From positions 62,001-126,000 of the forward strand of contig JACKQL020000069.1 in NCBI GenBank assembly GCA_018296165.2: a DNA stretch of 64,000 bases, given 5' to 3'. This DNA comes from Termitomyces sp. T153. Its lineage: Eukaryota; Basidiomycota; Agaricomycetes; Agaricales; Lyophyllaceae. The position numbers and the translations under genes are program-made. Each line of letters starts with the position of its first letter. The stretch's first letter is position 1. The notes under the pieces are model-generated. The model saw nothing but the letters and a program-made list of their open reading frames with translations, searched no databases and was not told where the DNA came from. This document shows positions 22,567 to 59,080 of the stretch, piece after piece.

Positions 22567-23701
22567 CCAGAGCATGCCCCGTGCCTTCGGCACGGGCCTG
22601 TAGCTCTTGCTTCATCCCAGACCCAACCTCACTTCGTTCGGTTAGGTCCTTGTATTTCAAACTCAATGCCAAGTCCCAGACCCAACCTCACTTCGTTCGG
22701 TTAGGTCCTTGTATTTCAAACTCAATGCCAAGTCCCAGACCCAACCTCACTTCGTTCGGTTAGGTCCTTGTATTTCAAACTCAATGCCAAGTCCCAGACC
22801 CAACCTCACTTCGTTCGGTTAGGTCCTTGTATTTCAAACTCAATGCCAAGTCCCAGACCCAACCTCACTTCGTTCGGTTAGGTCTTTGTATTTCAAACTC
22901 AATGCTAAGTCCCAGAACTATTGAGAATATCTATACTACACTGTCAACTCATATACATTAGGTGCTGAAATTCACAGAGATTAGCAATTTGGTGTTTGAA
23001 AGAGATCTACCTTAAAAGCAGAAAGCCAATAACTGTTTAGAAAAGAAAATGGATAATACTTGAATTAGTTCTCAGACAAATATAGAAAAAGCATACCTGC
23101 AAAGCTACTGAACACTCAGAAAGGGAGCCTAATGAAGAATGTAGTGAAGTCTGATTTCAGCCATGATTTGTCCCTAAAAGTTACACTCAAAAAAAGAGTA
23201 CACCTAGCCCAATTCAGCTTCAATATAGAAACAACCACCAAAATCAGCTATTGGACAATTAAGCAAAGAAAAGAAAGCCCACCTGAAAGAAGAGAAAGCT
23301 ACTCAATGCTCAGAAAAAGCCTGAAGAAGGATGCAATAGTGGAAATCTAGTTATCAGCTATGATCAGTGATTGGAGATGACAAACAGTAGAGCATACATG
23401 GCCAGGTTGAGTGTAAAAACCTCCAAAAGAGGGTCAGTAGAGTCTATCAGGCCAAACAAAGCTTCTTCTCACAGTATCAGAGCAGAGAGAATGGTTGATG
23501 CTTCATATTGGAAAGAGAGGTCAAAAGAAAGAGTGATTCGGTGCAATGATTGATCTTTGCCACACACCAAAGGAAAAGGCCGAAAATTTGAAGCCAGCCA
23601 ACTTACGTAATTTTACATAAGCATTACATAAGGAATCTTCCCAGGTTGTTGGAAGATTGAGGCACAGCCACTTTCCCAGGGGTCGTCGCATAGTATATAG
23701 A
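22567..23701 (-). mobile_element. Hel-1: non-autonomous Helitron, about 1.1 kb
   Basis: Read on the minus strand it starts TCTATATACTATGCGACGAC (5' TC) and ends in a 58-bp minisatellite plus hairpin CCCGTGCC-TTC-GGCACGGG close to the left edge. The edge reads CTCTGG followed by T, which fits the Helitron CTRR|T rule. No coding capacity is recognised. It is the left-most (3') member of the tandem block and of the same type as Hel-3 and Hel-8. Confidence 0.7.
22615..22918. repeat. 58-bp minisatellite of Hel-1
   Basis: About five near-identical units built on CCCAACCTCACTTCGTTCGG..TTAGGTCC, followed by a variable half (TTGTATTTCAAACTCAATGC). The last unit carries a CpG-type change. Confidence 0.9.
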
Positions 23702-23747
23702 CGAGCTACGCCCCGTGCCTTCGGCACGGGCCTGTAGCTCTTGCTTC

Positions 23748-24545
23748 ATCCCAGACCCAACCTCACTTCGTTCGGTTAGGTCCTCGATATTCTACTCAAT
23801 GCTTCATCCCAGACCCAACCTCACTTCGTTCGGTTAGGTCCTTGATATTCTACTCAATGCTTCATCCCAGACCCAACCTCACTTCGTTCGGTTAGGTCCT
23901 CGATATTCTACTCAATGCTTCATCCCAGACCCAACCTCACTTTGTTCGGTTAGGTCCTCGATATTCTACTCAATGCTTCATCCCAGACCCAACCTCACTT
24001 TGTTCGGTTAGGTCCTCGATATTCTACTCAATGCTTCATCCCAGACCCAACCTCACTTTGTTCGGTTAGGTCCTCGATATTCTACTCAATGCTTCATCCC
24101 AGACCCAACCTCACTTCGTTCGGTTAGGTCCTTGTAATTTAAACTCAATGCTTCATCCCAGACCCAACCTCACTTCATTCGGTTAGGTCTTTGTATTTCA
24201 AACTCAATGCTAATTCCCAGACCCAACCTCACTTTGTTCGGTTAGGTCTTTGTATTTCAAACTCAATGCTAATTCTCAGACCCAACCTCACTTCGTTAGG
24301 TTAGGTCCTTGTATTTCAAACTCAATGCTAAGTTCCAGACCCAACCTCACTTCGTTCGGTTAGGTCTTTGTATTTTGTCAACTCAATGCTAAGTCCCAGA
24401 CACAACCTCACTTCATTATATTCTACTCAATGCTAAGTCCCAGATCCAACCTCACTTCATTATATTCTACTCAATGCTAAGTCCCAGATCCAACCTCATT
24501 TTATTTGGTTAGGTCCTTGTATTTCAAACTCAATGCTAAGTTCCA
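23748..24545. repeat. 58-bp minisatellite of Hel-2, about 14 units
   Basis: The longest array in the block. Early units use TCGATATTCTACTCAATGCTTCAT as the variable half and later ones TTGTATTTCAAACTCAATGC. Units differ mainly by TCG to TTG or TCA, and the final units are shortened. Confidence 0.9.
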
Positions 24546-24940
24546 GAACTACTGAGAATATCTATACTACACTGTCAACCCATATACATTAGGTGCTGAA
24601 ATTCACAGAGGTTAGCAATTTGGTGTTTGAAAGAGATCTACCTTAAAAGCAGAAAGCCAATAACTGTTTAGAAAAGAAAATGGATAATACTTGAATTAGT
24701 TCTCAGACAAATATAAAAAAAGTATACCTGCAAAGCTACTGAACACTCAGAAAAGGAGCCTAATGAAGAATGTAGTGAAGTCTGATTTCAGCCATGATTA
24801 GTCCATAAAAGTTACACTCAGAAAAGGAGTATACCTAGCCCAATTCAGCTTTAATATAGAAACAACCACCAAAATCAGCCATTGAACAATTAAGCAAAGA
24901 AAAGAAAGCTCACCTGAAAGAAGAGAAAGCTACTCAATGC

Positions 24941-25603
24941 TCAGAAAAAGCCTGAAGAAGGATGCAATAGTGGAAATCCAGGAATATCCACAGTAGCTTG
25001 AGCAATAGCAGGCTGATTGACTGGTCCCAGCCTATTGACTCTTTCATATACAGGCAGAGGTGGCACCATTCTAGGTAAGACATTCTGTAAAGGGGCATTC
25101 CAACCTTCAGGCAGATGAGTTTCAGAAATACCCATAGTTGCAATAGGCTGATTGAGTCTATTGACTCTTTTTTGTATAGGAGCAGGCAGAGGAGGCACCA
25201 ATCTAGGTAAGGGATTCTGTAAAGAGGCATTCCATCCTTCAGGTAAAACAGTTTCAGGAATGACCATAGAGAATGGATCATCAGCAGGTGCTAACTGCCT
25301 AATAGGTCTTCCTGAAGAGCCAGAAGTGGTGGCTATAGATTGGTGATTAAGCCTCAATCCCGCAGATCCTATATCCCCAGATCCCATAGATTGATTGTTA
25401 CCCCTAGGCCTCAATTGAAGTGGTGGGACAACCACAGTATTGATCTGTTCCAAAGATCTATTGTTTCTATTTGCTCGACAATTGTCAGGATCTGTCATTT
25501 GTAGCTGTTCAAGTCTCCTTTGATTCCTAGCTTGTTGCCTTTGGCTTTCAGGAGTAGTAGGTGGTTGCCTGAAACACCCATTGTTAAGCAATTTAACAGT
25601 CAA
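24941..25603 (-). pseudogene. Truncated N-terminal piece of RepHel protein
   Basis: A 220-residue frame starting MTVKLLNNGCFRQPPTTPES, like the N-terminus of the RepHel genes in Hel-6 and Hel-10. It contains two IPET/IxETxLPEGWNA repeat units, then runs into unrelated sequence (after DIPGF) at the Hel-2 chimera junction. Rep and helicase domains are absent. It could still be translated as a short Q/P-rich protein. Confidence 0.65.
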
Positions 25604-26091
25604 AAACCATTAAAATTGACTTGCATGATGAGATATTTGATGTATCAATAGCTCAATGTGGTTAAGGAGTTACTAATAAGCTTGTTAGTCAACATCAATC
25701 AATCAATAGATGTGAGAAAACATACTTTGTCATGTGGCCTCCTTTCCACAACCTCGGAAATGCCCATTGTTTGGTCATATTGTGTCAAAAAACGCGCGAG
25801 GCGTGAAAAACAGTGTCCACTAAATCGCGTTTGGCCTTTTTCATCCCTGCAGACTAATTGGCACCTTTTACACATAGTCAAAAGATAGTATATATGTATT
25901 AAAGCTGTCTACTGCATTTGTTTTGGTAAAAAACTTATCCGAAGAGCGTAAAAACAGCCAAATCTGATTGTATTACCATAAAAGGGTTGAAATTTGTCAG
26001 CATTTGTCAGCGCTGACAAATTTTAGTCAGCAGAAAAGTCGTCGCATAGGCGCAGCCACATTCCCACGTCCGTCGTCGCATAATATATAGA

Positions 26092-27859: not shown

Positions 27860-29799
27860 CAAGCTATGCCCCGTGCCTTTGGCATGGGCCTGTAGCTCTT
27901 GCTTCATCCCAGACCCAACCGAACAAAGTGAGGTTGGGTCCTTGATATTCTACTCAATGCTTCATCCCAGACCCAACCTCACTTCATTTGGTTAGGTCCT
28001 TGTATTTCAAACTTAATGCTTCATCCCAGACCCAACCTCACTTTGTTCGGTTAGGTCCTTGTAATTCAAACTTAATGCTTCATCCCAGACCCAACCTCAC
28101 TTTGTTCAGTTAGGTCTTTGTATTTCAAACTCAATGCTAAATCCCAGACCCAACCTCACTATGTTTGGTTAGGTCTTTGTATTTTGTCAACTCAATGCCA
28201 AGATCCAAACTCAACCTCAGTTTGTCTTTTATCCCAGACCTAACTGAACAAAAGCTGACTTTGGTCTTTCTTTTTTAAATCAATGTGTTGATAGTCCTGT
28301 CATTGTCAATGTCAGTAGACATAAGTCTTTACTATGATTTCAATTATATTTCACTCAATCAAATGAACTTTCCTTTATAAGTATTCCATTATTTTTAACA
28401 TAATGCTGAAATCCAGACCAAACCTCACTTTGCTTGGTTAGATTTTCAATATTCCAACTCTTGCAAGTGATTAACATTAATAGATCATCTATAATATACT
28501 TGAACATTTAGAATTATTGATCAATCAAAGTCTCCTCCACCTTCTATCCCCTTATTACTCATGCACTTCGAAGAGCATGTTAGACAATTTTTGGACACCA
28601 AAATATACTAAAGAGAAACAAATTAGGGAAAGCAGTCTGAGTGATGAGATATCTACAATCTCATTATTGGTATCACTAAATGATACTAATACTTAGCAAT
28701 CAGACCTTTGACATCACTCATCTGTTGTCTTCAACTTGATATATCTGACTATACAATTATCTAATCACAAACCATACACCTTCAAATCAGAAATCCTGTG
28801 GATCCTCAGAAACAGGACCTAGCCTACAGCTATTAGTAGTGACCAAAAAACCTCCTGTTTCTTAACAGAGGACCATCAACTTTGCACATTCTATATTAAT
28901 ACTGCCTTCTGAAACTTTTTCCATCTCAAAGTAATCTTCAATGCTCTCTTCACTAATAGTAGCATACTAAATTAAATCCACCATCCTTTTTCAGGGCTGT
29001 CATAATGTAGTCAAATATCTATTGAGAGCAGGAAAAGTTGGAGATGATCAGGAGTAAGTTGACTCTAAGACATAAGGAACTGATTACTGTAAAATTATAA
29101 GAATTCACACTTGCAAGTCTGAACCATACACCTTGAAATCAGAAAGCCAGCAAACAGCTATATACACTGGGCAAGTATAGCTTCACTTTGTTTGGTTAAG
29201 GATTTGAATTTACAATTCAATGTTGGTACCATCTAACATCACAGAATACACATTCCAAGTTAGGGGATATCAGCAATCAAATTCAAGTCAGATTTATAGT
29301 CAAAACATACTGTATGTCATAAACCTCTCAAAGTCCCTCAAGAACCATAGTTGCCTAGAGATATACACTGGGCAACTATTCTCCTTTCCAAAGAATAAGT
29401 AGAAGCCTTTAAGAGTTAAAGAAACATTTTATACCACTTCTTTAGCCATTTTTGATCATGAATTTCATTGTTCTGAACTTTCTTTCTTTCCCAAAGAACA
29501 GCCAGAAGTGTTGCTTGAAGAGGTACATCAAAAGACAGTACATTTCACATAAGTCATGCCTGAAAAAGGCTAAAAATTGCCTGAAATATCAATCTTAAGG
29601 CTTGAAGAAACAATAGATTCATGCTATCAACCAAAGCTGTCTGTTTTTCCCTATTCAAAGTGTGAACAAAGAGCCAACTGCCTTAAAAGGCAATTCTTAT
29701 GTAAGAATTGGTCAGCATTAGTCAGGCTTACTTGAGCAGAGACCCAAAAAGGCATCCACACAGCCACTTTCCCACGTCCGTCGTCGCATAATATATAGA
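27860..29799 (-). mobile_element. Hel-5: non-autonomous Helitron, about 1.9 kb
   Basis: The 5' end TCTATATATTATGCGACGAC is followed by an AT-rich body without a convincing gene, then a degraded minisatellite and a CpG-decayed hairpin at about 27866-27890. Very similar along its length to Hel-7. A 60-codon open frame (29220-29402), shared with Hel-7, has no recognisable content. Confidence 0.75.
27906..28206. repeat. 58-bp minisatellite of Hel-5 with one flipped unit
   Basis: About five units. In the first (27910-27940) the core reads AACCGAACAAAGTGAGGTTG, the reverse complement of the usual core, inside normally oriented flanks. Confidence 0.85.
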
Positions 29800-29845
29800 C
29801 GAGCTACGCCCCGTGCCTTTGGCACGGGCCTGTAGCTCTTGCTTC

Positions 29846-30362
29846 ATCCCAGACCCAACCTCACTTCGTTCGGTTAGGTCCTCGATATTCTACTCAATGC
29901 TTCATCCCAGACCCAACCTCACTTCGTTCGGTTAGGTCCTCGATATTCTACTCAATGCTTCATCCCAGACCCAACCTCACTTCGTTTGGTTAGGTCCTTG
30001 TATTTCAAACTTAATGCTTCATCCCAGACCCAACCTCACTTCGTTCGGTTAGGTCTTTGTATTTCAAACTCAATGCTAATTCCCAGACCCAACCTCACTT
30101 CGTTCGGTTAGGTCCTTGTATTTCAAACTTAATGCTTCATCCCAGACCCAACCTCACTTCGTTCGGTTAGGTCTTTGTATTTCAAACTCAATGCTAAGTC
30201 CCAGACCCAACCTCACTTTGTTCGGTTAGGTCTTTGTATTTCAAACTTAATGCTTCATCCTAGACCCAACCTCACTTCGTTCAGTTAGGTCCTTGTATTT
30301 CAAACTCAATGCTTCATCCCAGACCCAACCTCACTTCATTCGGTTAGGTCTTTGTATTTTGT
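29846..30362. repeat. 58-bp minisatellite of Hel-6, about 9 units
   Basis: Near-identical units ending in a TTGTATTTTGTTGACC variant. It lies between the RepHel 3' region and the terminal hairpin. Confidence 0.9.
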
Positions 30363-30649
30363 TGACCAAGTGTTGCTTTTCTCTTACCATTCAATACACT
30401 GAGATTTCATCTATAAACCAATCATGTATCTATATTACATTATTAACAAAATACTACAATGTCCACTGATATATATTAGAGATGCTGAAAATTATAAAAG
30501 TTAGTACTAACCAACCAATTATTTAAACTGTCACACTTACATTTGTAAACCATTAAGAATATCTATACTACATGGTCCAGCTATAGACATTAGGTGCTGA
30601 AGTTCATAGAAGTTAGCAATTTCTTGCTTGAGTCCAACAAAACTCACAC

Positions 30650-33600
30650 TTACATTTGTAAACCATTCAGGATTTCCTGATAGACAATATTTGCAGTCTT
30701 TCTTGATGTGTTTTCTGGGTCCAAGATGACTTTGATACGATCTCCTGATGTGCACCGAGAGAGTGCAACATAAAGTTGGCCATGTGAAAAAACTCCTGAT
30801 CAAAGGTCCAATCCAACATGCTTGACTGATTGACCCTGAGACTTGTTGATAGTCATGGCAAAGGCCAATCGAACTGGGAATTGTCTCCTGCGCAATGGAA
30901 TTGGCAAATCTTCTTCAGACACATCCATGTTGATTCTTGGAATCAAAACAATTGATCCTGCAAACTTGGCATCTCCACTGATGATTCTACATCTGAGAAC
31001 TCTGGTGCTGATGTGAGTGACAATCATTCTTGTCCCATTGCAAAGTCCTTTGGTTGTATCCAGATTCCTGAGCAGCATGACAGGAACACCAATCTTCAGA
31101 GCCAATTTAGCCAAAGGCAAACTGCTGGCTCTGAGAGAGTTGAGGTATTCCATTGGATACAATCCAAGGCCATTAGGATTCCTATCATCAGATATGACAG
31201 AGTCTGCACTCTGCAAGATTTTCTCTTCTCCTGGACATTTCTGCAGAACTTCAGAGTTGATATCCTCTACATCAGAGTTCTTGCCAGAAAGGATGGTACG
31301 GTCCAGGTAATACTGATCATCTTGATGGTGATCAATATGAGGATAAGTGGAAGAGATCAATCCAGTGACAGAATTGTCATCACAGATCATGATTTCTGGA
31401 AGTTGTACTGTTTCTCCAGGCCCAAGGTTTTTTCCAGCACCAACATCCAATAACCAAGCTGCATGAGCAATGTTATCAGGAGTCTGATCCAATCTCATGT
31501 TTTGAACCAAGTAGTGGACTTGAATCTGATCCCAAAGTCTTCCCCTCTTGAGTGAAGCAGCAATCATCTGCTGCCTGAGTCCTCGTTGGATAACTGGGAG
31601 AGTTTGCCTGAAATCTCCTCCAAACACCACAGTCACTCCACCAAAAGGAACATCCTTCTCCAGAATGTCTCTGAACCCTCGATCCACAGAGTCAATGGCA
31701 TTTTTGTGTTGCATTGGGACTTCATCCCAGATGACAACTTTGGTCTGGAGTAAGAGTTGAGACAACTGAGTTCCTCTTTTGATATTGGCAATGGATGTAT
31801 CCAGAGCAGGAATGGGGATTTTGAACCTTGAGTGTGCAGTTCTACCACCCTCCAGCAATAAGGCAGCAATCCCAGATGATGCTACACATAATGCCACATC
31901 TCCATTGGACCGAACAGCAGAAGCCAAAGTGTTGCAGACAAATGTTTTGCCACATCCACCTGCACTGTGAATGAATATCATCTTGCCCAAGTTGTTGTCC
32001 ACAGAGTCCATAACTTCATTGAAGGCCCCCAGTTGTTCACCATTAAATCTGGCCTTGTTTTCATCCACCCTCCTCTTCAACTCCTCAATATCATAATCTG
32101 TTTCTTCTTGCAAAAGCCTATTTCCTGAAACTATTTGATCAGTATCAATGTCAACTCTTTATACAATGTCCAACTTGCCTGGAATCACATTCCAAACTTG
32201 TTGGGGTTCTGGCATGTTTGGAAAGTCTTGAAGAGTCTTGCCAAAATTCTTCAGATTGTCATTGATCAGATGAAGGCCATAGTCATAGACATCTTCATCA
32301 GTAAAGACTCTGTTCCTGTACTGCCTGATATTCTCCAATCTGTGTTGAAGATCATCACAAATGGAGTGCTTGAATTCGTCCCATAGAGCCTCTGGAGTGG
32401 TAGGAGCACAGTGGAATAGGATTGTGCAAAAGAGCTGTCTGAGAGCTGATCCTGATTGGATTGGAGCAGCTTCAGCAAGACATTGCCTCCATTCTGCATC
32501 ATCTTCTAGAAGACCAAGGGCCTTGCATGCCTCCTTGTAAGTTGGATAGGTGTGGCCATTGACTGTCCTGAGATTAGCCCATGATGTTGCATTGGTCACA
32601 ACTGTCAGGAGCATCCTAAGGTAGAACCTTTCTCCCTGTTTTGGTGAAGCAAAGTACATCCTCCCAATAGCTGTTCCTCTCTGCCTCTCCTTCCAGGTCC
32701 TTTTGGAAGCATCATAGACAAACTTGGTTGGAAAGTTCTGATAGGTAGTGTTGTTATCAGGGAATTTGGCATTGGCTTCAAACCAAGCAGTGAGTGCAGT
32801 CTTGTTTGCATTAGGCCTGGCAGCTACCATCTCCAAAGGCTCATTATCCTGAAAGTAGACTTCATGTTGGCCCTCCAAATGCACAGGTAATCGATACACA
32901 GAGGGATGTTCTCCATGCATGTTGAATTCAAAGATGTGCCAGCAAGCCTCAGGTGCAGAGATGTATCTGGCATCCAAGTGTTCCTTGATTTCATCCCTTT
33001 GCTCTCCAGCAATCTCCAAAGTTGTCCTATCATGGCCTTTGTAGATGTACTTGTGAATGTACTTGATGGCTTCCACTGAAGCACAGACCTCCACATTGAT
33101 GTGACATTTGTACTTGGCTGAGAGATAAGGGTTGTATGGAACAACATCTCGATTGTCATAATGATGACCATTCTTTTCAAAGAAGTGGCCATTGTCAGGC
33201 CTGGCATATTGAGGATAGCCATTATCTCCATACTGAGTAGCCTCTTGGAATTCCTTTGGGTATTTCTTGGAACATTTGCCATCTACCATGCACTTAGCAT
33301 TGGGTTTGGCAGCTCCACATGGGCCATGGACCATGTTGGTAATAACAACCTGACAACAAAGATAAGTTACTGAATCCAGAATTTAAACAAAGCCTATACC
33401 TGATACAATTCAGGCTGAGCAACTGGATCTGGAATTTGGGCAGAAACAATGGAATCCACATCAGGTGCATCCTTGATCCTGTGATGATGGTGGAAAAAGA
33501 TCAAGATGTGCATGTGTGGAAGTCCTCTCTTTTGGAATTCAATGGTATGAACATAAGCCACACAGCTGCCAAAGAGACCTTCCTTGATCTCCTTTACTAC

Positions 33601-36509: not shown

Positions 36510-37001
36510 AAACCATTAAAATTGACTTGCATGATGAGATATTTGATGTATCAACAGCTCAATGTGATAAAGGAGTTACTAATAAGCTTGTTAGTCAACA
36601 TCAATCAATCAATAGATGTGACGAAACATACTTTGTCGTGTGGCCTCCTTTCCACAACTTCGGAAATGCCCATTGCTTAGTCATGCTGTGTCAAAAAACG
36701 CGCGAGGCGTGAAAAACAGTGTCCACTAAATTGCGTTTGGCCTTTTTCACAGGTGTAGACTAATTGACACCTTTTACACATAGTCAAAAGATAGTATTTA
36801 TTCATTAAAGCTGTCTACTGTAATTTTTCTTCAAGAAAACATGTTCAAACGGCCAAAAACAGCCAACTTGTATCATGTTCACCTTTAAAAGGCAATTCTT
36901 ATGTAAGAATTGGTCAGCATTAGTCAGGCTTACTTGAGCAGAGACCCAAAAAGGCATCCACACAGCCACTTTCCCATGTCCGTCATCGCATAATATATAG
37001 A

Positions 37002-41999: not shown

Positions 42000-42008
42000 T
42001 CCTCCCCC
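42000..42008 (-). other. Polypurine tract
   Basis: On the coding (minus) strand GGGGGAGGA directly precedes the 3' LTR. This is the expected plus-strand primer site for reverse transcription. Confidence 0.75.
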
Positions 42009-42172
42009 GTACTGAAATATTGACTGTCCTCAGTCAACCCAAAAGTCACGTGCTTGATCGCCTGGTCCGTGCGCCAAAGGGATTCGAATAACAGTGGCTG
42101 GCGGTATCGCTTGAACTTCATCATCCCCCTTCCTTACCATCTAATCTCTCCTAGCCTCTCAATCTTATTGCT

Positions 42173-44180: not shown

Positions 44181-44612
44181 CGACCGTCGCCTCCTGTATA
44201 TAAATTTTATAATTTTGTTAGTAGTTTGGACCTAGCTTAGCCCCCTTAAGGGGCTCCCAAAATGTATAGTATTTTTGGCGAGCAATCAGAAAGTGAAACG
44301 AAATAGAAGAAAGAAAGCAAAACTCAATTGGGCATACTAGCGACTGTCGCCTAATGCTAGCGACATTTTGAAGGCAAACGCTCAGTAGATCATCATGGCG
44401 AATTACCCCGAGAGGCGTGCCAAGCGCTGGCGACAGAATAGCCTAGCGCAGCATCGAAACAAGACAGTAGTAAAGTGAAGTGTCTGTGAAAGGCTTTTTA
44501 ACTGTATTAAAATTGAAAGAGCAACGAGACGAAAAGGACTTAGGTTTTGTAAAGTAATTGTTGATGGATTTTCTGGGTAGTAGAGATGAGAGCGGTAAGA
44601 AACGAAGCAGAG

Positions 44613-47813: not shown

Positions 47814-47822
47814 TTTCGCTTG

Positions 47823-48386
47823 TCACTCGCTGGTGAATCGCTTTGTCGGGACGAAAGGTGGCGGGTTTGGGTTAAGCGGCGGAATGGTCGCTAGTGGATC
47901 GCCTATAACTTGACGCTCGATTCGAAAGTCTTCGCTAACATGGCTGGCGACCGGTTTGGTTTTCATGACTACGGGTTTGTACTTCTTCTTGACCTGTACT
48001 CCTTTCCGCTTAGGAGGTTTGTTAGCGACATACTGAGCGGGGAATGGGATGTTAACATAGGTGGGGGTAGTGTCCGTAACACACGTATCAAAGGGCAAAG
48101 TCTGTCCAAGAATCGAGGGATTAGAGGTATCAGTAGAAACGAAATAAGAACGAGGTGGAAGGGACAAATCAGAAATGTCGCTAGCCGTAGTGTAAAGGTA
48201 TGCTAGCGCGGGATTAGTCTGTGTGTTAGAATCGGTAAGCAAAACGTCTTGGTCCAAATCACAAGAAGCTATACACGTCGCTAGACCAGTTAAATGGTCA
48301 TAGCTGATAACGATCACTATGTCGCTATCTTCTTCATTGCCTCGGGCGATGAAAGCAACGGGGTGCCTCTGTTTCAAAGCGAACAT
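47823..48386 (-). CDS. Upstream part of pol frame (linker), ends at TGA
   Basis: 187 residues, in the same frame as pol and separated from it by one TGA. It overlaps the 3' end of gag-protease by 53 bp in a +1 relative frame. Basic (KPPKRKGVQVKKKYKP) with no recognised domain. Likely the N-terminal part of the Pol polyprotein, reached by frameshifting from gag. The TGA is either a readthrough site or a simple CGA to TGA mutation. Confidence 0.65.
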   Translation of the reverse strand: MFALKQRHPVAFIARGNEEDSDIVIVISYDHLTGLATCIASCDLDQDVLLTDSNTQTNPALAYLYTTASDISDLSLPPRSYFVSTDTSNPSILGQTLPFDTCVTDTTPTYVNIPFPAQYVANKPPKRKGVQVKKKYKPVVMKTKPVASHVSEDFRIERQVIGDPLATIPPLNPNPPPFVPTKRFTSE

Positions 48387-50988
48387 TTTGACGGCTGTTT
48401 CTCTTAGATTTGCCGCGTGGAAAGGTAGGGATAGTGCGCCGGAGACCAGTATTGGGGTCCGTAATTGTTATAGTTGTTTCGATGTCGCTAATGGTATTAA
48501 CCGTACTTCGGGTTAATACGTCGAATGGGTGACCGAGTAGGATGTCGTAAGCGGGAGACCGTAAAACATGAATTTGAAGATAGACCGTCACGTCGCCAAT
48601 CGTGCATGGTACGTTTCTAGCTAGTCCCAGTGATCGATCCATGGTACCGTTGGCGCTCTGCATGTTTAGCACGATGTTGGGGTCATAGGATAAGCCAATG
48701 TCGCTAGCGATTTTGGCGGACATCGAAATAATCTGAGAACCGCTGTCGTGAATGCATTCGACTTCCTCTTTATTGTCGATCAACATCATGACGGTACGAA
48801 GTGACTGAGATTCCTTAGCGACAGTGAGTACCACAGGCTCTTCTCCGGGGGATAGCGCATCAATATAGGCCTCGACAGGGTCGACTGAAGCGAGTGGTGC
48901 CTTGTCCGCGGTAAGTCCTTTAGCGGTATCAGCGTTTGACCCAAGCGAAAACTGAGGTTCTTCGATAGCGAACGTCGGCAAAATTTCTTCAAAAATGTCG
49001 CTGGAGTCCTGAACTGCATTAACGCTAGCGCCAACCGATCGTTTGGGCGTAACCGCTGTCCTAAACTGATTCCTGATGTCCTGGGATACAGAACAAAGTT
49101 CGCCAACCGATATCGTAACCTGGGTGCGTAAGACTCGTTCGAAAACCGCTTTGGATTGCTCGATGTCGTAGATGGGTGGCATCGTTCGATATGCGCCGTC
49201 GTTAGCTTTGTCGGGAGCAGCGAAATTCCGGTTAGCGGGTGGGGCGTAGCGACTAGGGAGGCCAGAAAATGGATGAATAGGAGGCTGAGCCACCGGTTCC
49301 TTAGCGGCAGACGGTTGTTCCTTAGCGACGGTGCGTTCAGGTGCTTTGCCTTTGTCAGCAGGCTTAGTGGCAGGAACTGGAGCTGAATCAGAAGGGGTGG
49401 AAGTTGCCGGAGGGTCACTGGTCGAGGGCGTTGCCTTTGAAGCATCACTTGCTGGTCGGTAAGTCGCTCGGGGGACTTGTACGCCGTCGAATTTTTCGCC
49501 GTTTCGCCGGAGTGCAAATAGCTCGCGTTCCAAAGCCTCGATCCGTTCTTCCTTGCTTAGCACTCGGCCTGTGGCGACGTCCTGTTGCATTACCTCGTGT
49601 ATTAGCGACTGCTGCATTGCCGCCTGCTCTGGGTCTGGGTTAGCGTTGGAAGAAAGTCTGCCTGTAACGATTTGTCCTGGATTAAGCCGGTGCCATTCCT
49701 CGATGCGTTCAATGTATAGTCGCTTGCCGGAATAGTTGGGAATCATGGCGCCAGACGGTAAAATGATCTTGCCTTCGGCGTTACGACGGATCTTACCCTG
49801 TCTGATCATTTGCTCAAGCTTAATACAAGTGCCTCGGACCATAGTGTGACCTATTTCCCCGCAGAAGTGGCAAGTGCTGTTAGCGAACTGTTGGCGAGGT
49901 TGGGCGTTACCGCTGGTTAGAAGGGCTTCCAAACGTTCCAAGGCGCTGACGATTGCGGTAGTGGTCGCTAATTCCAATGCTTCTTGCTTAGGTGCCGGCG
50001 AAGGGACGGTCGGCGGGTTAGCGATGGGCGATGACGAATGGATGCCGGTGGTGCCATTGCTGGTCTTAGCCGTGGAAGTGTCCGTTCCTTTTAGAACCCA
50101 CTTAGCGCCTTCGAAGACTTGGTCAACATCGTAAGGGTCCTCAGGATGGTGATCAGGAAGGGTGATTTCGAGGCGGCGGACGACTTTAGACCATAGCGAT
50201 GTGGGGATACCTTGTTGGAACAAGCGACGTTCCTCGTTACGATATAGCTTGCCGTTAGCGAGTAACCATCTAGCAATACGTTGGAAGTCCCGGTAGTAGT
50301 CAGAGAACCTTCCCAAAGTCGCTAAGCCGCTGTTGAAAGACTGGTTAACTAGTCGTTCCAGATCGCCAAGATTATAACGAGCACTAGCGTCAGCGCCAGG
50401 GTACAACCTAAGCACTGCCGCTTTCCATTCCTGGTAATTGTAGGGTCGAGGAGCATCGTTGTCGACCATAATATTGTCGCCAAATTCAGGTAAGCCAAGC
50501 CAAGTCTCCGCCGTGTCATAGGAAACATATCGAGACGCGTATTCTTTCTTTTGTGTGTCGTCAGTGATACCGCAATCAGCGAAGAGATATTCCAGTTCTT
50601 TGAAGTATTGGGGGAGTTCCCTAGGGCGACTCTCATCCCACTTAGGTGCCGTAGTGTCATTGCGAGGCGGCATTCTAGCGCGCCGAGCAACGGGATCGTT
50701 GTTCATGTTAACGGTTGTCGGATTTAGCGGAGGACGGGGGATAGTTGGTGATACGGGAATAGAGTGGGCTTCGGGGAAGAATATAGAGTCGGTTGGGGTT
50801 AACGGTGAAAGCGGCGCGTCGAGAAAACTTTCAATGAGAGCGCCTGGGAAGTCGGCAAGGATTTCGCTAACGTCGCGAAGGTTTTTAGCGGTTTCGAGTT
50901 CGTCGGCAAGGGGTCGAGGACGGGCTGCTGGTGAAGAATGCCGAGGGGTCGAAATGGAAGACTGGGGTGGTTCAAAAGGGTTTTTCAA
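48334..50988 (-). CDS. gag: Retrotransposon gag-protease
   Basis: 884-residue frame. Capsid-like region at about 130-290 (ELPQYFKELEYLFADCGI, WLGLPEF, RYNLGDLERLV). A CCHC-like knuckle CHFCGEIGHTMVRGTC has six rather than four residues between His and the last Cys. A long Ser/Pro/Thr-rich spacer follows, then an aspartic protease with IHDSGSQIISMS (DSG active site) and DILLGHPF. It ends in a basic tail. Because protease lies in the gag frame and pol in +1, expression of pol probably needs a translational shift, as in Ty3. Confidence 0.9.
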   Translation of the reverse strand: MKNPFEPPQSSISTPRHSSPAARPRPLADELETAKNLRDVSEILADFPGALIESFLDAPLSPLTPTDSIFFPEAHSIPVSPTIPRPPLNPTTVNMNNDPVARRARMPPRNDTTAPKWDESRPRELPQYFKELEYLFADCGITDDTQKKEYASRYVSYDTAETWLGLPEFGDNIMVDNDAPRPYNYQEWKAAVLRLYPGADASARYNLGDLERLVNQSFNSGLATLGRFSDYYRDFQRIARWLLANGKLYRNEERRLFQQGIPTSLWSKVVRRLEITLPDHHPEDPYDVDQVFEGAKWVLKGTDTSTAKTSNGTTGIHSSSPIANPPTVPSPAPKQEALELATTTAIVSALERLEALLTSGNAQPRQQFANSTCHFCGEIGHTMVRGTCIKLEQMIRQGKIRRNAEGKIILPSGAMIPNYSGKRLYIERIEEWHRLNPGQIVTGRLSSNANPDPEQAAMQQSLIHEVMQQDVATGRVLSKEERIEALERELFALRRNGEKFDGVQVPRATYRPASDASKATPSTSDPPATSTPSDSAPVPATKPADKGKAPERTVAKEQPSAAKEPVAQPPIHPFSGLPSRYAPPANRNFAAPDKANDGAYRTMPPIYDIEQSKAVFERVLRTQVTISVGELCSVSQDIRNQFRTAVTPKRSVGASVNAVQDSSDIFEEILPTFAIEEPQFSLGSNADTAKGLTADKAPLASVDPVEAYIDALSPGEEPVVLTVAKESQSLRTVMMLIDNKEEVECIHDSGSQIISMSAKIASDIGLSYDPNIVLNMQSANGTMDRSLGLARNVPCTIGDVTVYLQIHVLRSPAYDILLGHPFDVLTRSTVNTISDIETTITITDPNTGLRRTIPTFPRGKSKRNSRQNVRFETEAPRCFHRPRQ

Positions 50989-51041
50989 GCGACGTTTCGC
51001 GTGAGCTCTTGTTTCTGGCGGAATGGTTAACTTCTAAACAG

Positions 51042-51059
51042 CCCTCGCGGTGGGCTCCA
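51042..51059 (-). other. Primer-binding site
   Basis: On the coding strand TGGAGCCCACCGCGAGGG lies 3 nt after the 5' LTR. It begins with TGG, complementary to a tRNA CCA end. I cannot assign the primer tRNA with confidence. Confidence 0.7.
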
Positions 51060-51062
51060 AAA

Positions 51063-52110
51063 TGATGTGCTCCTATGCCGCCTAGTGCCGTGCAGGAAAC
51101 CTAACACTTGTCACTAGATAGGATAGCTGGCAGTAGGAAGTTAATAATTGAGGGCGAGTCAGTAACCGTCCCAGAGAACTAGAGCGAAAGTGGTGGCAAG
51201 GAGGTGAAGTCGAAAAGAATCGCTACTGCTAACGATAGTCGCAGCGAAACTGAAACGGTGGCGGGGCGAATAAAGGAGAGAGACGGCGGTAAGAGTAAAA
51301 CTAAGATCGACGGACGAACGTAAACTTATTGCTAGCCGCAATTGCTAGCGTCACTAAATTGAAATAACGCTAATAGGCACCCGTAATCGGTACCACACTA
51401 AGTCGAGGTCGAGGTTGAAGAGGTTTGTCGCGAACCCAAAGTCGAAGACGAGATGAGGGAAAGGGATGAGGCGAATGGAATCTTTAAGCTGGTAGCTTAT
51501 AGATGGAGGAGTAATACGATGGTGATGCGATGATAAAATTGATTGTCGGGTGTCTATGTACAGGCAGTATTTATACGTTTTCGAAGTATAGTAAGGGAAG
51601 GTAAGCAATTAAGCGCCACTAGCGGCAGCGTCTGCCACTGTGTTTAGGTTGCGTGCCAGGCGTCAGTCCGTAACTAAGTAAAAGGTCATAGGGGAGGCCT
51701 TGGCGACGACTAATTGCTAATAAGAACCAAAAAGAGAACGAGTCCGATGTCAATACCTGAAGTAAGAACACCGTTCAGGGATGTTGGTAAGCTCGACAAG
51801 GGGAATGATAGTAAAAAGGTACGCGTCTGGTAATATGTCCATATATAGTAAAGGAACGCCGTTTTGTCGCCAGGATCGCTAAGATCGCTAATAATCGTCG
51901 CCAAGAGGGTCTAGGCCTTGATGGTCTAGGCCCAAGTTCCAGGCTTCGCGTGATGTTCCCCGTGATCAATAAGTCTCGTGGTCACTAGAGTCTTGTGCTT
52001 CGGTCCAATCCTAGGGCTAAGTCCCGTGCGCTGAGTGTTGTGACTTGTGTCACATTCGAAGTAGTCAGCTGCCGCCGAAAAAGGTGCTCAGCGATAACTG
52101 GGGCTCATCA
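51063..52110 (-). repeat. 5' LTR (1048 bp)
   Basis: The same length as the 3' LTR, with the ends TGATG/CATCA. By eye I count 13 substitutions between the two, 11 of them transitions at CpG. Confidence 0.95.
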
Positions 52111-52297
52111 CTGTTCCAAGTGCGGCAAAAATAGCCCAAGCTGCCCAAAAGGAGGTTCTTGGTCAGCAGCTGACAAATTTTAGTCAGCACAATCCAAAGT
52201 CGTCACGCAGTGAGTGCTGTACTTTCCCAGGGTCGTGCCATATATTATGAGCGAGCTAAGCCCCGTGCCTTCGGCACGGGTCTGCTTCTTGCTTCAT

Positions 52298-52635
52298 CCC
52301 AGACCCAACCTCACTTCGTTCGGTTAGGTCCTTGTATTTCAAACTTAATGCTTCATCCCAGACCCAACCTCACTTCGTTCGGTTAGGTCTTTGTATTTCA
52401 AACTCAATGCTAATTTCCAGACCCAACCTCACTTCGTTCGGTTAGGTCTTTGTATTTCAAACTTAATGCTAATTCCCAGACCCAACCTCACTTTGTTCGG
52501 TTAGGTCCTTGTATTTCAAACTTAATGCTTCATCCCAGACCCAACCTCACTTCGTTCGGTTAGGTCTTTGTATTTCAAACTCAATGCTAATTTCCAGACC
52601 CAACCTCACTTCGTTCGGTTAGGTCTTTGTATTTT
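52298..52635. repeat. 58-bp minisatellite of Hel-10, about 6 units
   Basis: Same unit as the other arrays, ending in the TTGTATTTTGTTGACC variant shared with Hel-6. Confidence 0.9.
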
Positions 52636-52924
52636 GTTGACCAAGTGTTGCTTTTCTCTTACAATTCAATACACTGAGATTTCATCTATAAACCAATCAT
52701 GTATCTATATTACATTATTAACAAAATACTACAATGTCCACTGGTATATATTAGAGATGCTGAAAATTATAAAAGTTAGTACTAACCAACCAATTATTTA
52801 AACTGTCACACTTACATTTGTAAACCATTAAGAATATCTATACTACATAGTCCAGCTATAGACATTAGGTGCTGAAGTTCATAGAAGTTAGCAATTTCTT
52901 GCTTGAATCCAACAAAACTCACAC

Positions 52925-55900
52925 TTACATTTGTAAACCATTCAAGATTTCCTGATAGACAATATTTGCAGTCTTTCTTGATGTGTTTTCTGGGTCCAAG
53001 ATGACTTTGATACGATCTCCTGATGTGCACCGTGAGAGTGCAACATAAAGTTGGCCATGCAAAAAAACTCCTGATCGAAGGTCCAATCCAACATGCTTGA
53101 CTGATTGACCCTGAGACTTGTTGATAGTCATGGCAAAGGCCAATCAAACTGGGAATTGTCTCCTGCGCAATGGAATTGGCAAATCTTCTTCAGACACATC
53201 CATGTTGATTCTTGGAATCAAAACAATTGATCCTGCAAACTTGGCATCTCCACTGATGATTCTACATCTGAGAACTCTGGTGCTGATGTGAGTGACAATC
53301 ATTCTTGTCCCATTGCAAAGTCCTTTGGTTGTATCCAGATTCCTGAGCAGCATGACAGGAACACCAATCTTCAGAGCCAATTTAGCCAAAGGCAAACTGC
53401 TGGCTCTGAGAGAGTTGAGGTATTCCATTGGATACAATCCAAGGCCATTAGGATTCCTATCATCAGATATGACAGAGTCTGCACTCTGCAAGATTTTCTC
53501 TTCTCCTGGACATTTCTGCAGAACTTCAGAGTTGATATCCTCTACATCAGAGTTCTTGCCAGAAAGGATGGTACGGTCCAGATAATACTGATCATCTTGA
53601 TGGTGATCAATATGAGGATAAGTGGAAGAGATCAATCCAGTGACAGAATTGTCATCACAGATCATGGTTTCTGGAAGTTGTACTGTTTCTCCAGGCCCAA
53701 GGTTTTTTCCAGCACCAACATCCAATAACCAAGCTGCATGAGCAATGTTATCAGGAGTCTGATCCAATCTCATGTTTTGAACCAAGTAGTGGACTTGAAT
53801 CTGATCCCAAAGTCTTCCCCTCTTGAGTGAAGCAGCAATCATCTGCTGCCTGAGTCCTCGTTGGATAACTGGGAGAGTTTGCCTAAAATCTCCTCCAAAC
53901 ACCACAGTCACTCCACCAAAAGGAACATCCTTCTCCAGAATGTCTCTGAACCCTCGATCCACAGAGTCAATGGCATTTTTGTGTTGCATTGGGACTTCAT
54001 CCCAGATGACAACTTTGGTCTGGAGTAAGAGTTGAGACAACTGAGTTCCTCTTTTGATATTGGCAATGGATGTATCCAAAGCAGGAATGGGGATTTTGAA
54101 CCTTGAATGTGCAGTTCTACCACCCTCCAGCAATAAGGCAGCAATCCCAGATGATGCTACACATAATGCCACATCTCCATTGGACCGAACAGCAGAAGCC
54201 AAAGTGTTGCAGACAAATGTTTTGCCACATCCACCTGCACTGTGAATGAATATCATCTTGCCCAAGTTGTTGTCCACAGAGTCCATAACTTCATTGAAGG
54301 CCCCCAGTTGTTCACCATTAAATCTGGCCTTGTTTTCATCCACCCTCCTCTTCAACTCCTCAACATCATAATCTGTTTCTTCTTGCAAAAGCCTATTTCC
54401 TGAAATCATTTAATCAGTATCAATGTCAACTCTTTATACAATGTCCAACTTGCCTGGAATCACATTCCAAACTTGTTGGGGTTCTGGCATGTTTGGAAAG
54501 TCTTGAAGAGTCTTGCCAAAATTCTTCAGATTGTCATTGATTAGATAAAGGCCATAGTCATAGACATCTTCATCAGTAAAGACTCTGTCCCTGTACTGCC
54601 TGATATTCTCCAATCTGTGTTGAAGATCATCACAAATGGAGTGCTTGAATTCGTTCCATAGAGCCTCTGGAGTGGTAGGAGCACAGTGGAATAGGATAGT
54701 GCAAAAGAGCTGTCTGAGAGCTGATCCTGATTGGATTGGAGCAGCTTCAGCAAGACACTGCCTCCATTCTGCATCATCTTCTAGAAGACCAAGGGCCTTG
54801 CATGCCTCCTTGTAAGTAGGATAAGTGTGGCCATTGACTGTCCTGAGATCAGCCCATGATGTTGCATTGGTCACAACTGTCAGGAGCATCCTAAGGTAGA
54901 ACCTTTCTCCCTGTTGGGGTGAAGCAAAGTACATCCTCCCAATAGCTGTTCCTCTCTGCCTCTCCTTCCAGGTCCTTTTGGAAGCTTCATAGACAAACTT
55001 GGTTGGAAAGCTCTGATAAGTGGTGTTGTTATTAGGGAATCTGGCATTGGCTTCAAACCAAGCAGTGAGTGCAGTCTTGTTTGCATTAGGCCTAGCAGCT
55101 ACCATCTCCAAAGGTTCATTATCCTGAAAGTAGACTTCATGTTGGCCCTCCAAATGCACAGGTAATCGATATACAGGGGGATGTTCTCCATGCATGTTGA
55201 ATTCAAAGATGTGCCAGCAAGCCTCAGGTGCAGAGATGTATCTGGCATCCAAGTGTTCCTTGATTTCATCCCTCTGGTCCATCTGCTCTCCAGCAATCTC
55301 CAAAGTTGTCCTATCATGGCCTTTGTAGATGTACTTGTGAATGTACTTGATGGCTTCTACTGAAGCACAGACCTCCACATTGATGTGACATTTGTACTTG
55401 GCTGAGAGATAAGGATTATATGGAACAACATCTCGATTGTCATAACGATGACCATTCTTTTCAAAGAAGCGTCCATTGTCAGGTCTGGCATATTGAGGAT
55501 AGCCATTGTCTCCATACTGAGTAGCCTCTTGGAATTCCTTTGGGTATTTCTTGGAACATTTGCCATCTACCATGCACTTAGCATTGGGTTTGGCAGCTCC
55601 ACATGGACCATGGACCATGTTGGCAGTAACAACCTGACAACAAAGATAAGTAACTGAATTCAGGATTCAAACAAAGCCAATACCTGATACAATTGAGGCT
55701 GAGTGACTGGATCTGGAATCTGAGCAGAGACAATGGAATCCACATCAGGTGCATCCTTGATCCTGTGATGGCGATGGAAAAAGATCAAGATGTGCATATG
55801 TGGAAGTCCTCTCTTTTGGAATTCAATGGTATGAACATAAGCCACACAGCTGCCAAAGAGACCTTCCTTGATCTCCTTTACCACAGCATTTTTCTTGAGT

Positions 55901-58572
55901 TCAAAAACTCTGGCAACAATATCAGGTCGATCAGCAGCTGTTTGCTTCTTCCCATTGACTGCAGGTTCCTTCAAGAGAGCTTCTTCAATTTCTGACCACT
56001 TTGGATTGGCAGTCATAGTCAAGAAGAGGTCAGGTTTTCCAAAATTCCTGCAGATAGCCATAGAGTCCTGGAATAATTGCTGCATCTGTCGATCACTTCC
56101 AGTATGGGAGGATGGGAGGATAACACGTCGGCTTTGTGGGGTGACTTGTTCATCTCCAGCAGCAGCATCCACTACTCCCTGATAAACTTCAGCTCTGATC
56201 TTCTTCTGATTGTGTCGAATCCAATTCAACTTGTTTTGTTCAGTGGAAGCCCATGCATCTACAACATATTGTTGAAATAGCCTCCCACTCCAGAGTAATG
56301 GTGCATTGAATTCCAAAGTCCTTTGCTGCAGCCTGTATGCATAATATGCTGTTTGGGTGACCTTTGCTGATCTTTGTTGATTCTGTGGTCCAAAATGAGA
56401 GTGAATGTTGGTGTGAAATCCAGGCTGTCCAGTGGGAAAGATGATGGTATAATGCAATGGAGTGTAATATGGGTGCAAGTGACTGATCTGCTTCAATTGA
56501 CCTCCATGCAAGTGCAAGACTATATCACGATCATTTGATCGCTCTTCTGAGCCATCTCCTGGAATTACAGCTGCAACTCCCTCCTGTTCATTAGGGTCAT
56601 TATAGCGTCGAGGATCTCCAAAATCAGCTGTAAGCTTGACAGAAAGCCTTTGTGGTTGGCCTTCTGGAACTTCTCCCATGATCTGCCTGGCCTGCTTGTA
56701 TAAGCCAATGAAGGGATTGACTCTAGCAAGCATATCCTGCAAAGAGGCCATTATCTGAGGATCAAGCCTGGGATTGTTCTGTTGACGAAAAGCCAATTGC
56801 TGATTGTGATCATAAAAGTAGAGCTGTGCATATACAGGCAGATTGCCTTCAATAGGAAGCAAGGCACCTGTCAAATGATGTAGTTCTCCATTGATCCTAA
56901 AGCTGTATGGTCCAGGTGCATTGGTAATGGCATGGTCAATTTTGACTCCCAAAGATGTGAATGCAAAGGCTGCATTGTATTGACAGATTGATGTTTTAAA
57001 GGTGTTAGAGAGAGGATGATGCCCATGGAGCAGGTTCAGTAAATCTGCTGGAGCATCTCAAAGCCTGGGCAAGTTCACTTGGCCTTGTAAGCAGCACATG
57101 CCAAACTTTGGGCTGTTTCTAGTAGACTTGGTGAGCTTTTCAGCATCAAAATGTAAAGCTTGGCAGTGTGGACATATAACAGTCATAGGACCAAGATAGT
57201 GTGGAGGGTATTCAACCAAGTAAGGTTGCCTTCCTCTTGGAACAGGCTGAATAGGACCAAGCTGTGGTGGAATAGGAAGTCCAAGGGGAGGCTCTGGTTC
57301 TTCTGCTGGTATATTTTCAGCAGGATTTTCTGGTTGTGGTGGATCATTGGGTAGGGCAGGGTCCAAGTCTTCTGCAGGTCTCTGTTGAGCAGGATCAACA
57401 TATTCCAAGCCATCATCAGAAGACATGTCATCCTGAGGACCCAATGGATCATCAAGGGGAGGATCCAATTGCTCTGCTAGTTGATGTTGAGCAGGATCAA
57501 CATATTCCAAGTCATCCTCAGAAGGTATATCATTCTGAGGACCCAAATCATTGAAATCCTCTTCCAGATCAGCTTCATGTTGCTGTTCCCAACCTTGAAA
57601 GATTCTTTGAGCCATAGCTGCATTCAAAGGCCTATGTTCAGGATTCAGATCAATATGCTATTGAACTTTGTTAATTAAGGTAGCATCTTGAAGTAGTCTT
57701 GAACTGACCTCTGCTCTGAATAGCTCTTCTTCCTGTCTTGCTCTTTCCTGTCTTTCCTGGCTCAAAATAGCTAATGCCTGCTGCCTGTCCTGCTCTTGTC
57801 TCAGCCTTTGTTGCTCTTCTAATACAGCCAATGCTTGTTCATGTCTGATCTGGTAGTTTTCCATCTCCTGAGCAACATTAGGAGCAGGGGGAGGTGGAGC
57901 AGGTCTGATTCTTCTAAGTGCAGGAGCAGGTAGAAGAGGCACCATTCTGGGTATAGGATGCTGTAAAGGAGCATTCCATCCTTCAGGCAAAATAGTTTGA
58001 GGAATGATCACTGTAGGTTGAGCAATAGTGGGCTGATTGAGCCTATTGTCCCTTCCATGTACAACAGATAGAGATGGCATCATGATGGGCATAGAATTCT
58101 CCATAGGAACTTTTCTCACTCTTCTAAGTGGAGGAGCAGGTGGAGGAGGCACCATTCTAGGAATGGGATTCTGCAAAGGAGCATCCCATCCTTCAGGCAA
58201 AACAGTTTCAGGGATCACTATGGAAAATGGATCAGCAGCAGCAACTGGCTGCCTAATAGGTCTTCCTGAAGAGCTAGAAGTGGTGGCTATAGCTTGGTGA
58301 TTAAGCCTCAAACCCTCAGATCCCATACCCCCAGATCCCATAGATTGATTAATACCCCCAGTTCCCATACCCCCAGGCCCAAATTGAAGTGGTGGAACAA
58401 CCACAGTATTGATCTGTTCCAAAGATCTATTGTTTCTATTTGCTCGACGATTGTCAGGATCTGTCATTTGTAACTGTTCAAGTCTCCTTTGATTCCTAGC
58501 TTGTTGCCTTTGGCTTTCAGGAGTAGTAGGTGGTTGCCTATAACATCCATTGTTAAGCAATTTAACAGTCAA
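52925..58572 (-). pseudogene. Helitron RepHel protein of Hel-10, decayed
   Basis: Same architecture as the Hel-6 gene: Q/P-rich extension (58572-57658) with two LPEGWxAPLQ repeats, acidic LEYVDP repeats, Cys cluster, Rep HxH motif PHMHILIFF, intron near 55625-55680, YIHKYIYKG, and a Pif1 helicase (54409-53144) with GGCGKT, IWDE and GDFRQTLP. Here extension and Rep are in one frame, showing they form a single protein. Stops: TAG after NKVQ (about 57659), CGA to TGA at 57058, TAA at 54434 (shared with Hel-6), TAA at 54410, and CGA to TGA at 53144. All are explainable as C to T. Confidence 0.88.
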
Positions 58573-59057
58573 AAACCATTAAAATTGACTTGCATGATGA
58601 GATATTTGATGTATCAATAGCTCAATGTGGTTAAGGAGTTACTAATAAGCTTGTTAGTCAACATCAATCAATCAATAGATGTGACGAAACATACTTTGTC
58701 GTGTGGCCTCCTTTCCACAACTTCGGAAATGCCCATTATTTGGTCATGTTGTGTCAAAAAACGCGCGAGGCGTGAAAAACAGTGTCCACTAAATCGCGTT
58801 TGGCCTTTTTCATCCCTGCAGACCAATTGGCACCTTTTACACATAGTCAAAAGATAGTATTTATTCATTAAAGTTGTCTACTGTATTTTTTTTTGTAAAA
58901 AATGTATCCGAAGAGCGGCAAAACAGCCTGTTACCATAAAAGGGTTGAAATTTGTCAGCATTTGTCAGCGCTGACAAATTTTAGTCAGCACAGTCCAAAG
59001 TCGTCGCATATAATGGGCGCACAGCCACTTTCCCAGGAGTCGTCGCATATCTATAGA

Positions 59058-59080
59058 TCCGTCGTCCCATATATTATAGA
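59058..59080 (-). mobile_element. Helitron 5' terminal remnant
   Basis: The first 23 bases of another family member (TCTATAATATATGGGACGAC..) lie directly upstream of the Hel-10 5' end and border host DNA. This suggests Hel-10 inserted at, or was templated next to, the 5' tip of an older copy. Confidence 0.6.

What the first reader, a model, noticed from the sequence alone, without database searches (positions are those of the whole stretch)
22567..59080. Head-to-tail concatemer of ten Helitron-type elements
Seen directly: ten units all on the minus strand. Each begins TC(T)ATA..ATG.GACGAC and ends with a hairpin or CTAA, and each 3' end abuts the next 5' TC with no host DNA between. Junctions lie at 23701/2, 26091/2, 27223/4, 27859/60, 29799/800, 37001/2, 39179/80, 40481/2 and 52250/1. 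Known: Helitrons move by rolling-circle replication and can produce tandem copies by read-through or end-targeted insertion. Inference: this is a large natural concatemer mixing autonomous-type and several non-autonomous types, which could show how composite Helitrons arise.
Basis: partly seen in the sequence, partly recalled or inferred. Interest (0 to 1): 0.85.

Follow-up and report, generated by a model that had tools for sequence, protein, structure and literature searches.

The report
Self-targeting Helitron array in Termitomyces
A stretch of what is probably a termite-farmed mushroom's genome holds several different copy-making DNA transposons stacked nose to tail, most likely because each newcomer inserts at the front end of one already there, which resembles the family's preferred landing site.

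Summary
Real, but over-counted, and probably not a rolling-circle concatemer. All units lie on the minus strand; seven boundaries are true 3'-end/5'-end junctions. The two "CTAA" boundaries (27223/4, 40481/2) are internal seams of one composite element, and most of unit 40482-52250 is an 11.2-kb LTR retrotransposon: eight elements, not ten. They are A|T-inserting Helitrons (5' TC, 3' hairpin, Rep and PIF1 helicase) ending CTCG rather than CTRR, in a Termitomyces-like genome. The pattern is genome-wide: 53 of 105 exact 3' ends run straight into another 5' end. Neighbours differ in type, which argues against a multimer. Best explanation: insertion at the A|T formed by a host A and the first T of a resident. 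Listed non-tandem 5' ends follow A in 105 of 117; target flanks share a motif that three of four 5'-end variants of the element fit well, and a matrix of it ranks an LTR hotspot (21 hits, 449 empty copies) first of 37 sites. Tests of 5'-ward growth are mixed: one supportive, others weak or null. Tandem Helitrons are known; how their G/T junctions arise was left open in 2008.

The parts
52251..59080 (-). Element 1: autonomous-type Helitron, outermost 5' unit; Rep ORF 55660-56952, PIF1 ORF 53144-54409
   Evidence: 94.9% to the unit 29800-37001 over 5,257 bp; PF14214 E 1.7e-64; PF05970 E 4.2e-68
39180..52250 (-). Element 2: composite = 5' fragment of an autonomous-type element (ends ...CTTGCTAA at 40482) fused to an N1 unit (39180-40481)
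   Evidence: seam recurs elsewhere
40952..52110 (-). LTR retrotransposon inserted in the 5' part of element 2 (RNase H and integrase zinc-binding matches, weak aspartyl protease matches)
37002..39179 (-). Element 3: non-autonomous type N2
   Evidence: 95.9% to 27860-29799
29800..37001 (-). Element 4: autonomous-type Helitron; Rep in ORF 33394-35469, PIF1 in ORF 30800-32113
27860..29799 (-). Element 5: non-autonomous type N2
   Evidence: first 360 bp 100% to an array unit on C64
26092..27859 (-). Element 6: second copy of the composite = 5' fragment (27224-27859) + N1 (26092-27223)
23702..26091 (-). Element 7: chimera, 5' part autonomous-like, 3' part N1-like
22567..23701 (-). Element 8: non-autonomous type N1, 3'-most unit; altered 3' tail
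23702..23740 (-). Example of the 3' terminal hairpin ending GTAGCTCG (inner 8-bp stem with GAA loop about 10 nt from the terminus, plus an outer stem)
   Evidence: -19.9 kcal/mol, z -6.6
29860..30360 (-). Example of the subterminal 58/59-bp minisatellite found inside each of the eight 3' ends of the window

Best explanation
The array is a stack of separate transposition events by one canonical Helitron group. The Rep/helicase inserts its single-strand or circular intermediate between A and T. The A|T formed by a host A and the first T of a resident element (A|TCTATA...ATG) is a preferred target, because the sequence just downstream of the element's own 5' nick site resembles the preferred host target. 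Each insertion there gives A-[new ...CTCG]-[TC resident], a perfect G|T junction, and restores an A|TC site at the new outer end, so the array grows at its 5' edge. SHOWN: ends, A|T rule, empty LTR sites, heterogeneous neighbours, target motif, hotspot. INFERRED: that the initiation nick and the target nick are made by the same recognition; the 5'-ward order of events.
For: 105 of 105 exact 3' ends are followed by T, 53 of them directly by another 5' end. The base before the 5' end is A in 105 of 117 listed non-tandem ends (84 of 96 after removing the hotspot, the CTAA seam and repeats); in 53 listed tandem ends it is G in 42, A in 7, T in 4 (170 of 265 exact 5' ends were listed). 45 distinct flanks of non-tandem 3' ends have AT[AG] starting at +6..+10 in 31, against 17% of 793 control A|T sites in the same flanks. 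A position matrix trained on 43 of these, without the LTR sites, ranks the LTR hotspot first of 37 A|T sites in one LTR copy, and puts three of four 5'-end variants in the top 0.3-5.2% of control sites. Hotspot: 21 Helitron 5' ends at one nucleotide (19 with <=2 mismatches) against 449 empty copies. Direction: the 5'-end CpG reads TG in 28 of 53 junction-downstream ends but in 28 of 112 others, P=0.0007 (61 of the 112 counted by hand), whereas 3' ends at junctions are not more decayed than the rest (0.37 against 0.46 of sites, P=0.35).
Against: Growth order is not proven. Nearest-neighbour identity shows no polarity (upstream higher 22, downstream higher 21, ties 3, of 46 usable pairs). 3'-end decay shows none (last unit more decayed in 11 arrays, less in 11, of 24; no trend with position). 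With equal selection, outermost 1 of 22 against inner 13 of 58 is only suggestive (P=0.10), and the contrast weakens to P=0.07 in the main 3' family; subfamily differences could cause it. The window's own outermost unit has T, not A, before it. 12 of 117 non-tandem ends lack A. The hotspot has the best matrix score but lacks the AT[AG] triplet, a second used LTR position ranks only 12th of 37, and one 5' variant (TCTATAGTATATG) scores poorly. The motif gives only a few-fold preference, far short of the self-targeting seen, so something more, such as Rep binding at resident 5' ends, is needed. Insertions into existing elements may also survive selection better.
Confidence: 0.7

Rival explanations
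1. Insertion at the 3' end of a resident: the newcomer enters the non-canonical G|T at CTCG|T, so the downstream unit is the younger.
For: Gives the same junction; the 3' hairpin is a natural Rep recognition site (inference); the polarity tests do not exclude it.
Against: Needs G before the 5' end, seen in only 4 of 117 listed non-tandem 5' ends. The downstream member's 5' CpG is more, not less, decayed than that of other 5' ends.
Confidence: 0.13
2. Rolling-circle read-through or multimeric circles inserted as one concatemer.
For: Tandem Helitrons of plants and bats have been called reminiscent of this (PMC5876387, passages); joined-end Helitron products were seen in Fusarium (PMC5148889, passages).
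Against: Adjacent units in the window differ in type and length; in only 2 of 58 adjacent pairs is either unit the other's nearest relative, and 5 of 77 array members with a nearest neighbour have it in their own array (first 360 bp).
Confidence: 0.07
3. Recombination, segmental duplication or haplotig duplication between existing arrays made much of the tandem order.
For: C10 (163-165 kb) and C148 (85-87 kb) share a unit of equal spacing and 100% identity over its first 360 bp, both flanking 3' ends and the start of the next unit; the minisatellites offer homology.
Against: Explains spread of arrays, not the origin of exact junctions in many unit combinations; only 5 matches of ordered pairs at >=94% were found, one of them within a single array.
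Confidence: 0.08
4. Assembly artefact.
For: Repeats can be mis-joined; reads were not available.
Against: 58 exact 19-base junction matches on many contigs (at least one, on C48, is not a Helitron 5' end), with unlike neighbours and a consistent base rule.
Confidence: 0.02

Closest known systems
Adjacent head-to-tail maize Helitrons (Du et al. 2008, PMC2267711; passages read)
   Same: Two different Helitrons with a perfect G/T junction; the authors favour consecutive insertions, name both the 3' GT and the 5' AT routes, and say the order is not clear
   Different: One pair there; here, depending on the pattern, roughly 100 to 170 junctions, a target motif and an LTR hotspot bear on the choice
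Tandem Helitron arrays of bats and plants (as cited in PMC5876387, passages)
   Same: Head-to-tail arrays
   Different: There described as reminiscent of rolling-circle concatemers; here neighbours are unlike
Pleurotus HELPO1/HELPO2 (PMC4289320; passages)
   Same: Basidiomycete Helitrons, AT insertion, subterminal hairpin, RepHel; HELPO2 also departs from CTRR (CTTG)
   Different: The passages seen report AT-rich flanks; 'tandem' has 0 occurrences in that text
Fusarium FoHeli (Helitron2-like, PMC5148889; passages)
   Same: Fungal; one insertion 2 bp upstream of another element's 5' end and one triple tandem in Metarhizium noted
   Different: Asymmetric terminal inverted repeats, not found here, and other insertion sites

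Membership tests
Helitron (canonical, Helitron1) | 5' TC, insertion between A and T, no target duplication | tested here: met
   105 of 117 listed non-tandem 5' ends follow A; 105 of 105 exact 3' ends precede T; LTR empty sites AATAA|TTCAG against occupied ones
Helitron (canonical, Helitron1) | Hairpin about 10-12 nt from the 3' terminus | tested here: met
   one unit folded; inner stem about 10 nt from the end
Helitron (canonical, Helitron1) | 3' terminal CTRR | tested here: not met
   CTCG, with CTTG and CTCA as variants; HELPO2 has CTTG (PMC4289320)
Helitron (canonical, Helitron1) | Rep (Helitron_like_N) plus PIF1 helicase | tested here: met
   in both long units, in separate ORFs; exon structure not worked out
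Helitron2 / Helentron | Asymmetric terminal inverted repeats | tested here: not met
   six units, exact matches no longer than in shuffles; only first 40 and last 120 nt compared
Helitron2 / Helentron | Endonuclease domain (Helentrons) | tested here: inconclusive
   no endonuclease match among the ten ORFs given to Pfam; small ORFs and exons not covered
Rolling-circle concatemer | Neighbouring units near-identical | tested here: not met

The most novel reading that the evidence does not exclude
The Rep uses one recognition rule for its origin and its target: the element's left end is among the best targets in the genome, and host targets, including an LTR hotspot, are weak copies of it. The family is therefore self-targeting and builds 5'-growing arrays, a way for a rolling-circle transposon to limit harm to its host and to breed composite elements.
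Probability: 0.45. Interest if true: 0.7.

Novelty: new variant of a known kind. Interest (0 to 1): 0.5.

Why it matters
How perfect Helitron head-to-tail G/T junctions arise has been open since at least 2008 (PMC2267711, passages). A genome with a hundred or more such junctions, a few hundred 5' ends, a measurable target motif and a ~450-copy LTR family that acts as a natural target assay makes the question directly testable. It also shows one concrete composite Helitron: a 5' fragment fused to an N1 element that recurs as one unit.

Tried and rejected
Hairpins at targets: DNA folding of the first 30, 40 and 60 nt shows no excess over downstream segments or shuffles. Nearest-neighbour age polarity: null. 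3'-end decay polarity: null. Near-miss insertions: five flanks match resident 5' ends at +29 to +48, but the last 60 bp of the 3' end offers only one A|T, so this does not discriminate; in all 19 of 96 5' flanks and 18 of the distinct 3' flanks matched some Helitron sequence at that loose cut-off, and reversed flanks gave 5 and 5. Empty site of this array: none. Asymmetric terminal repeats: none. Literature searches. The one paper holding both 'Helitron' and 'Termitomyces' (listing only) is about Pseudoxylaria; no listing showed this target motif in title or abstract start. Most subscription papers are not held.

The motif was chosen after looking at the flanks, so its P value is optimistic; the LTR ranking is the out-of-sample check. 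Flanks dropped before the motif analysis: of 52 non-tandem flanks, 5 lying in Helitron 5' sequence and 2 duplicates by their first 12 bases; 45 kept. A few kept flanks lie inside Helitrons or LTRs. Capped lists: one search showed 100 of 195, 100 of 151, 100 of 192, 100 of 170, 100 of 449; some searches were complete.
Full report
WHAT IS THERE. The window is part of contig C69 of a 72.4-Mb assembly in 307 contigs. The Rep ORF of the outermost unit is 99% identical to a protein of Termitomyces sp. J132, so the host is a Termitomyces or a close relative (inference). The ten proposed units were printed end to end and compared with each other. Two long units (52251-59080 and 29800-37001) are 94.9% identical over 5,257 bp and carry Helitron_like_N and PIF1 helicase. 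37002-39179 and 27860-29799 are one non-autonomous type (N2, 95.9%). 39180-40481, 26092-27223 and 22567-23701 are another (N1, 96-98%). 23702-26091 is a chimera of an autonomous-like 5' part and an N1-like 3' part.

CORRECTION OF THE COUNT. The two units said to end in CTAA carry neither the 3' hairpin nor the 59-bp subterminal repeat. They are matching 5' fragments (95% over their last 446 bp), each fused to an N1 unit, and the same seam recurs on other contigs (5 rows, one of them the window's own; two in the C64 array, one of them also). They are the front halves of one composite element. Unit 40482-52250 is mostly an LTR retrotransposon at 40952-52110. The array therefore holds eight elements with seven junctions.

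THE ENDS ARE REAL. In all 105 exact 3' ends of the genome (one CpG site allowed to vary) the next base is T. Of 117 listed non-tandem 5' ends, 105 follow A. 449 stretches of an LTR (<=3 mismatches) read AATAA|TTCAG without an insertion, and 21 have a Helitron 5' end at that point (two of them at 3 mismatches). The matching 3' flank appears behind eight of 196 listed 3' ends. In the 12 occupied LTRs fetched, several 5' types of Helitron are seen; the DNA beyond the LTR differs in most, while three run into what looks like the retrotransposon's own interior. This is a paralogous empty site with no duplication, and it fixes both termini. The 3' hairpin folds at -19.9 kcal/mol, z -6.6. The 3' terminus is CTCG rather than CTRR. 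No asymmetric inverted repeats were found.

THE PATTERN IS GENOME-WIDE. 53 of 105 exact 3' ends run straight into another 5' end. With three CpG sites allowed to vary there are 247 3' ends; 196 were listed, 91 of them junctions, a weighted share of 0.51. From the 5' side, 53 of 170 listed ends (49 of 100 W rows, 4 of 70 S rows) follow a 3' end. A second array, C64:41646-55065, was read in large part: same types, different order (outer end). Eighty further 5' segments were fetched; with the window and C64 this gives 88 segments in 30 arrays and 5 others.

HOW IT FORMS. A rolling-circle multimer predicts like neighbours; in only 2 of 58 adjacent pairs is either unit the nearest relative of the other within the 93 sampled segments. 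Separate insertions must therefore be end-targeted, and two routes give the same G|T junction: into CTCG|T at a resident's 3' end, or into A|T at a resident's 5' end. Du et al. 2008 state this choice for one maize pair and leave the order open (PMC2267711, passages). The 5' route needs no exception to the A|T rule; the 3' route needs G before the 5' end, seen in 4 of 117 non-tandem cases. Targets show a motif in the bases that become the 3' flank: AT[AG] at +6..+10 in 31 of 45 against 17% of 793 control sites. The common 5' ends of the element fit it. A matrix trained on 43 targets without LTR sites ranks the LTR hotspot first among 37 A|T sites of one LTR copy, although that site lacks the AT[AG] triplet, and scores three of four 5'-end variants higher still; a second used LTR position ranks 12th. 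With roughly ten million A|T sites in the genome (extrapolated from the density) and a few hundred 5' ends, a share near one half means enrichment of more than a thousandfold. The motif alone is too weak for that, so direct recognition of resident left ends by Rep is the likely remainder (inference).

DIRECTION OF GROWTH. The 5' route predicts older downstream units. In favour: TG instead of CG at the 5'-end site in 28 of 53 junction-downstream ends against 28 of 112 others, P=0.0007, while 3' ends at junctions are not more decayed than others. Weak or null: the same contrast in the main 3' family alone (16 of 38 against 12 of 51, P=0.07); outermost against inner units (P=0.10); nearest-neighbour identity (22 against 21); last against earlier 3' ends (11 against 11 of 24 arrays). 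Subfamily differences could also produce the contrast. The order of events is therefore supported only moderately.

PLACE AMONG KNOWN THINGS. The elements are canonical Helitrons with a variant 3' terminus. Tandem Helitrons are known in plants, bats and a few fungi (PMC5876387, PMC5148889, passages). What I did not find in the searches named in Tried and rejected is a Helitron group in which about half of all 3' ends are stacked on another element, with a target motif that matches its own left end and a sharp LTR hotspot.

Noticed in passing
L041-L052 (C9, C10, C20, C31, C140, C190, C82, C6, C4, C23, C168, C247): LTR hotspot: 21 Helitron 5' ends at one nucleotide of a ~430-bp LTR against 449 empty copies; several 5' types among the 12 fetched.
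   Followed up: partly
L081-L083; L059 (C29:628799): A second LTR position on the opposite strand (CAGTA|TGACAGAG) was used by at least two Helitrons; it ranks only 12th of 37 in the motif matrix.
   Followed up: partly
G000:C19:1494-1589: Three Helitron 5' ends spaced 31 bp apart, the listed upstream bases being 5'-end sequence itself for two of them: a miniature 5'-end repeat or very short elements.
   Followed up: no
L099/L100 and L128/L129 (C10 and C148): A unit 100% identical over its first 360 bp, with the same altered 3' end (GTAGTTCG) and the start of the next unit shared between two contigs; haplotig, duplication or co-mobilised block.
   Followed up: partly
window 23702-26091: Chimeric element joining an autonomous-type 5' part to an N1-type 3' part.
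   Followed up: no
window 22567-59080: A 58/59-bp minisatellite with 4-12 copies lies inside each of the eight true 3' ends; CpG observed/expected differs between Helitron units, 0.13-0.45 (retrotransposon-bearing unit left out).
   Followed up: partly
G000: Four junctions read TAGCT|TC instead of TAGCTCG|TC, as if the 3' end had been cut two bases early.
   Followed up: no
window 60627-61670 (-) and 18837-19724 (+): Flanking ORFs match SMI1/KNR4 and, weakly (just below the cut-off), a ferric reductase NAD-binding domain.
   Followed up: no
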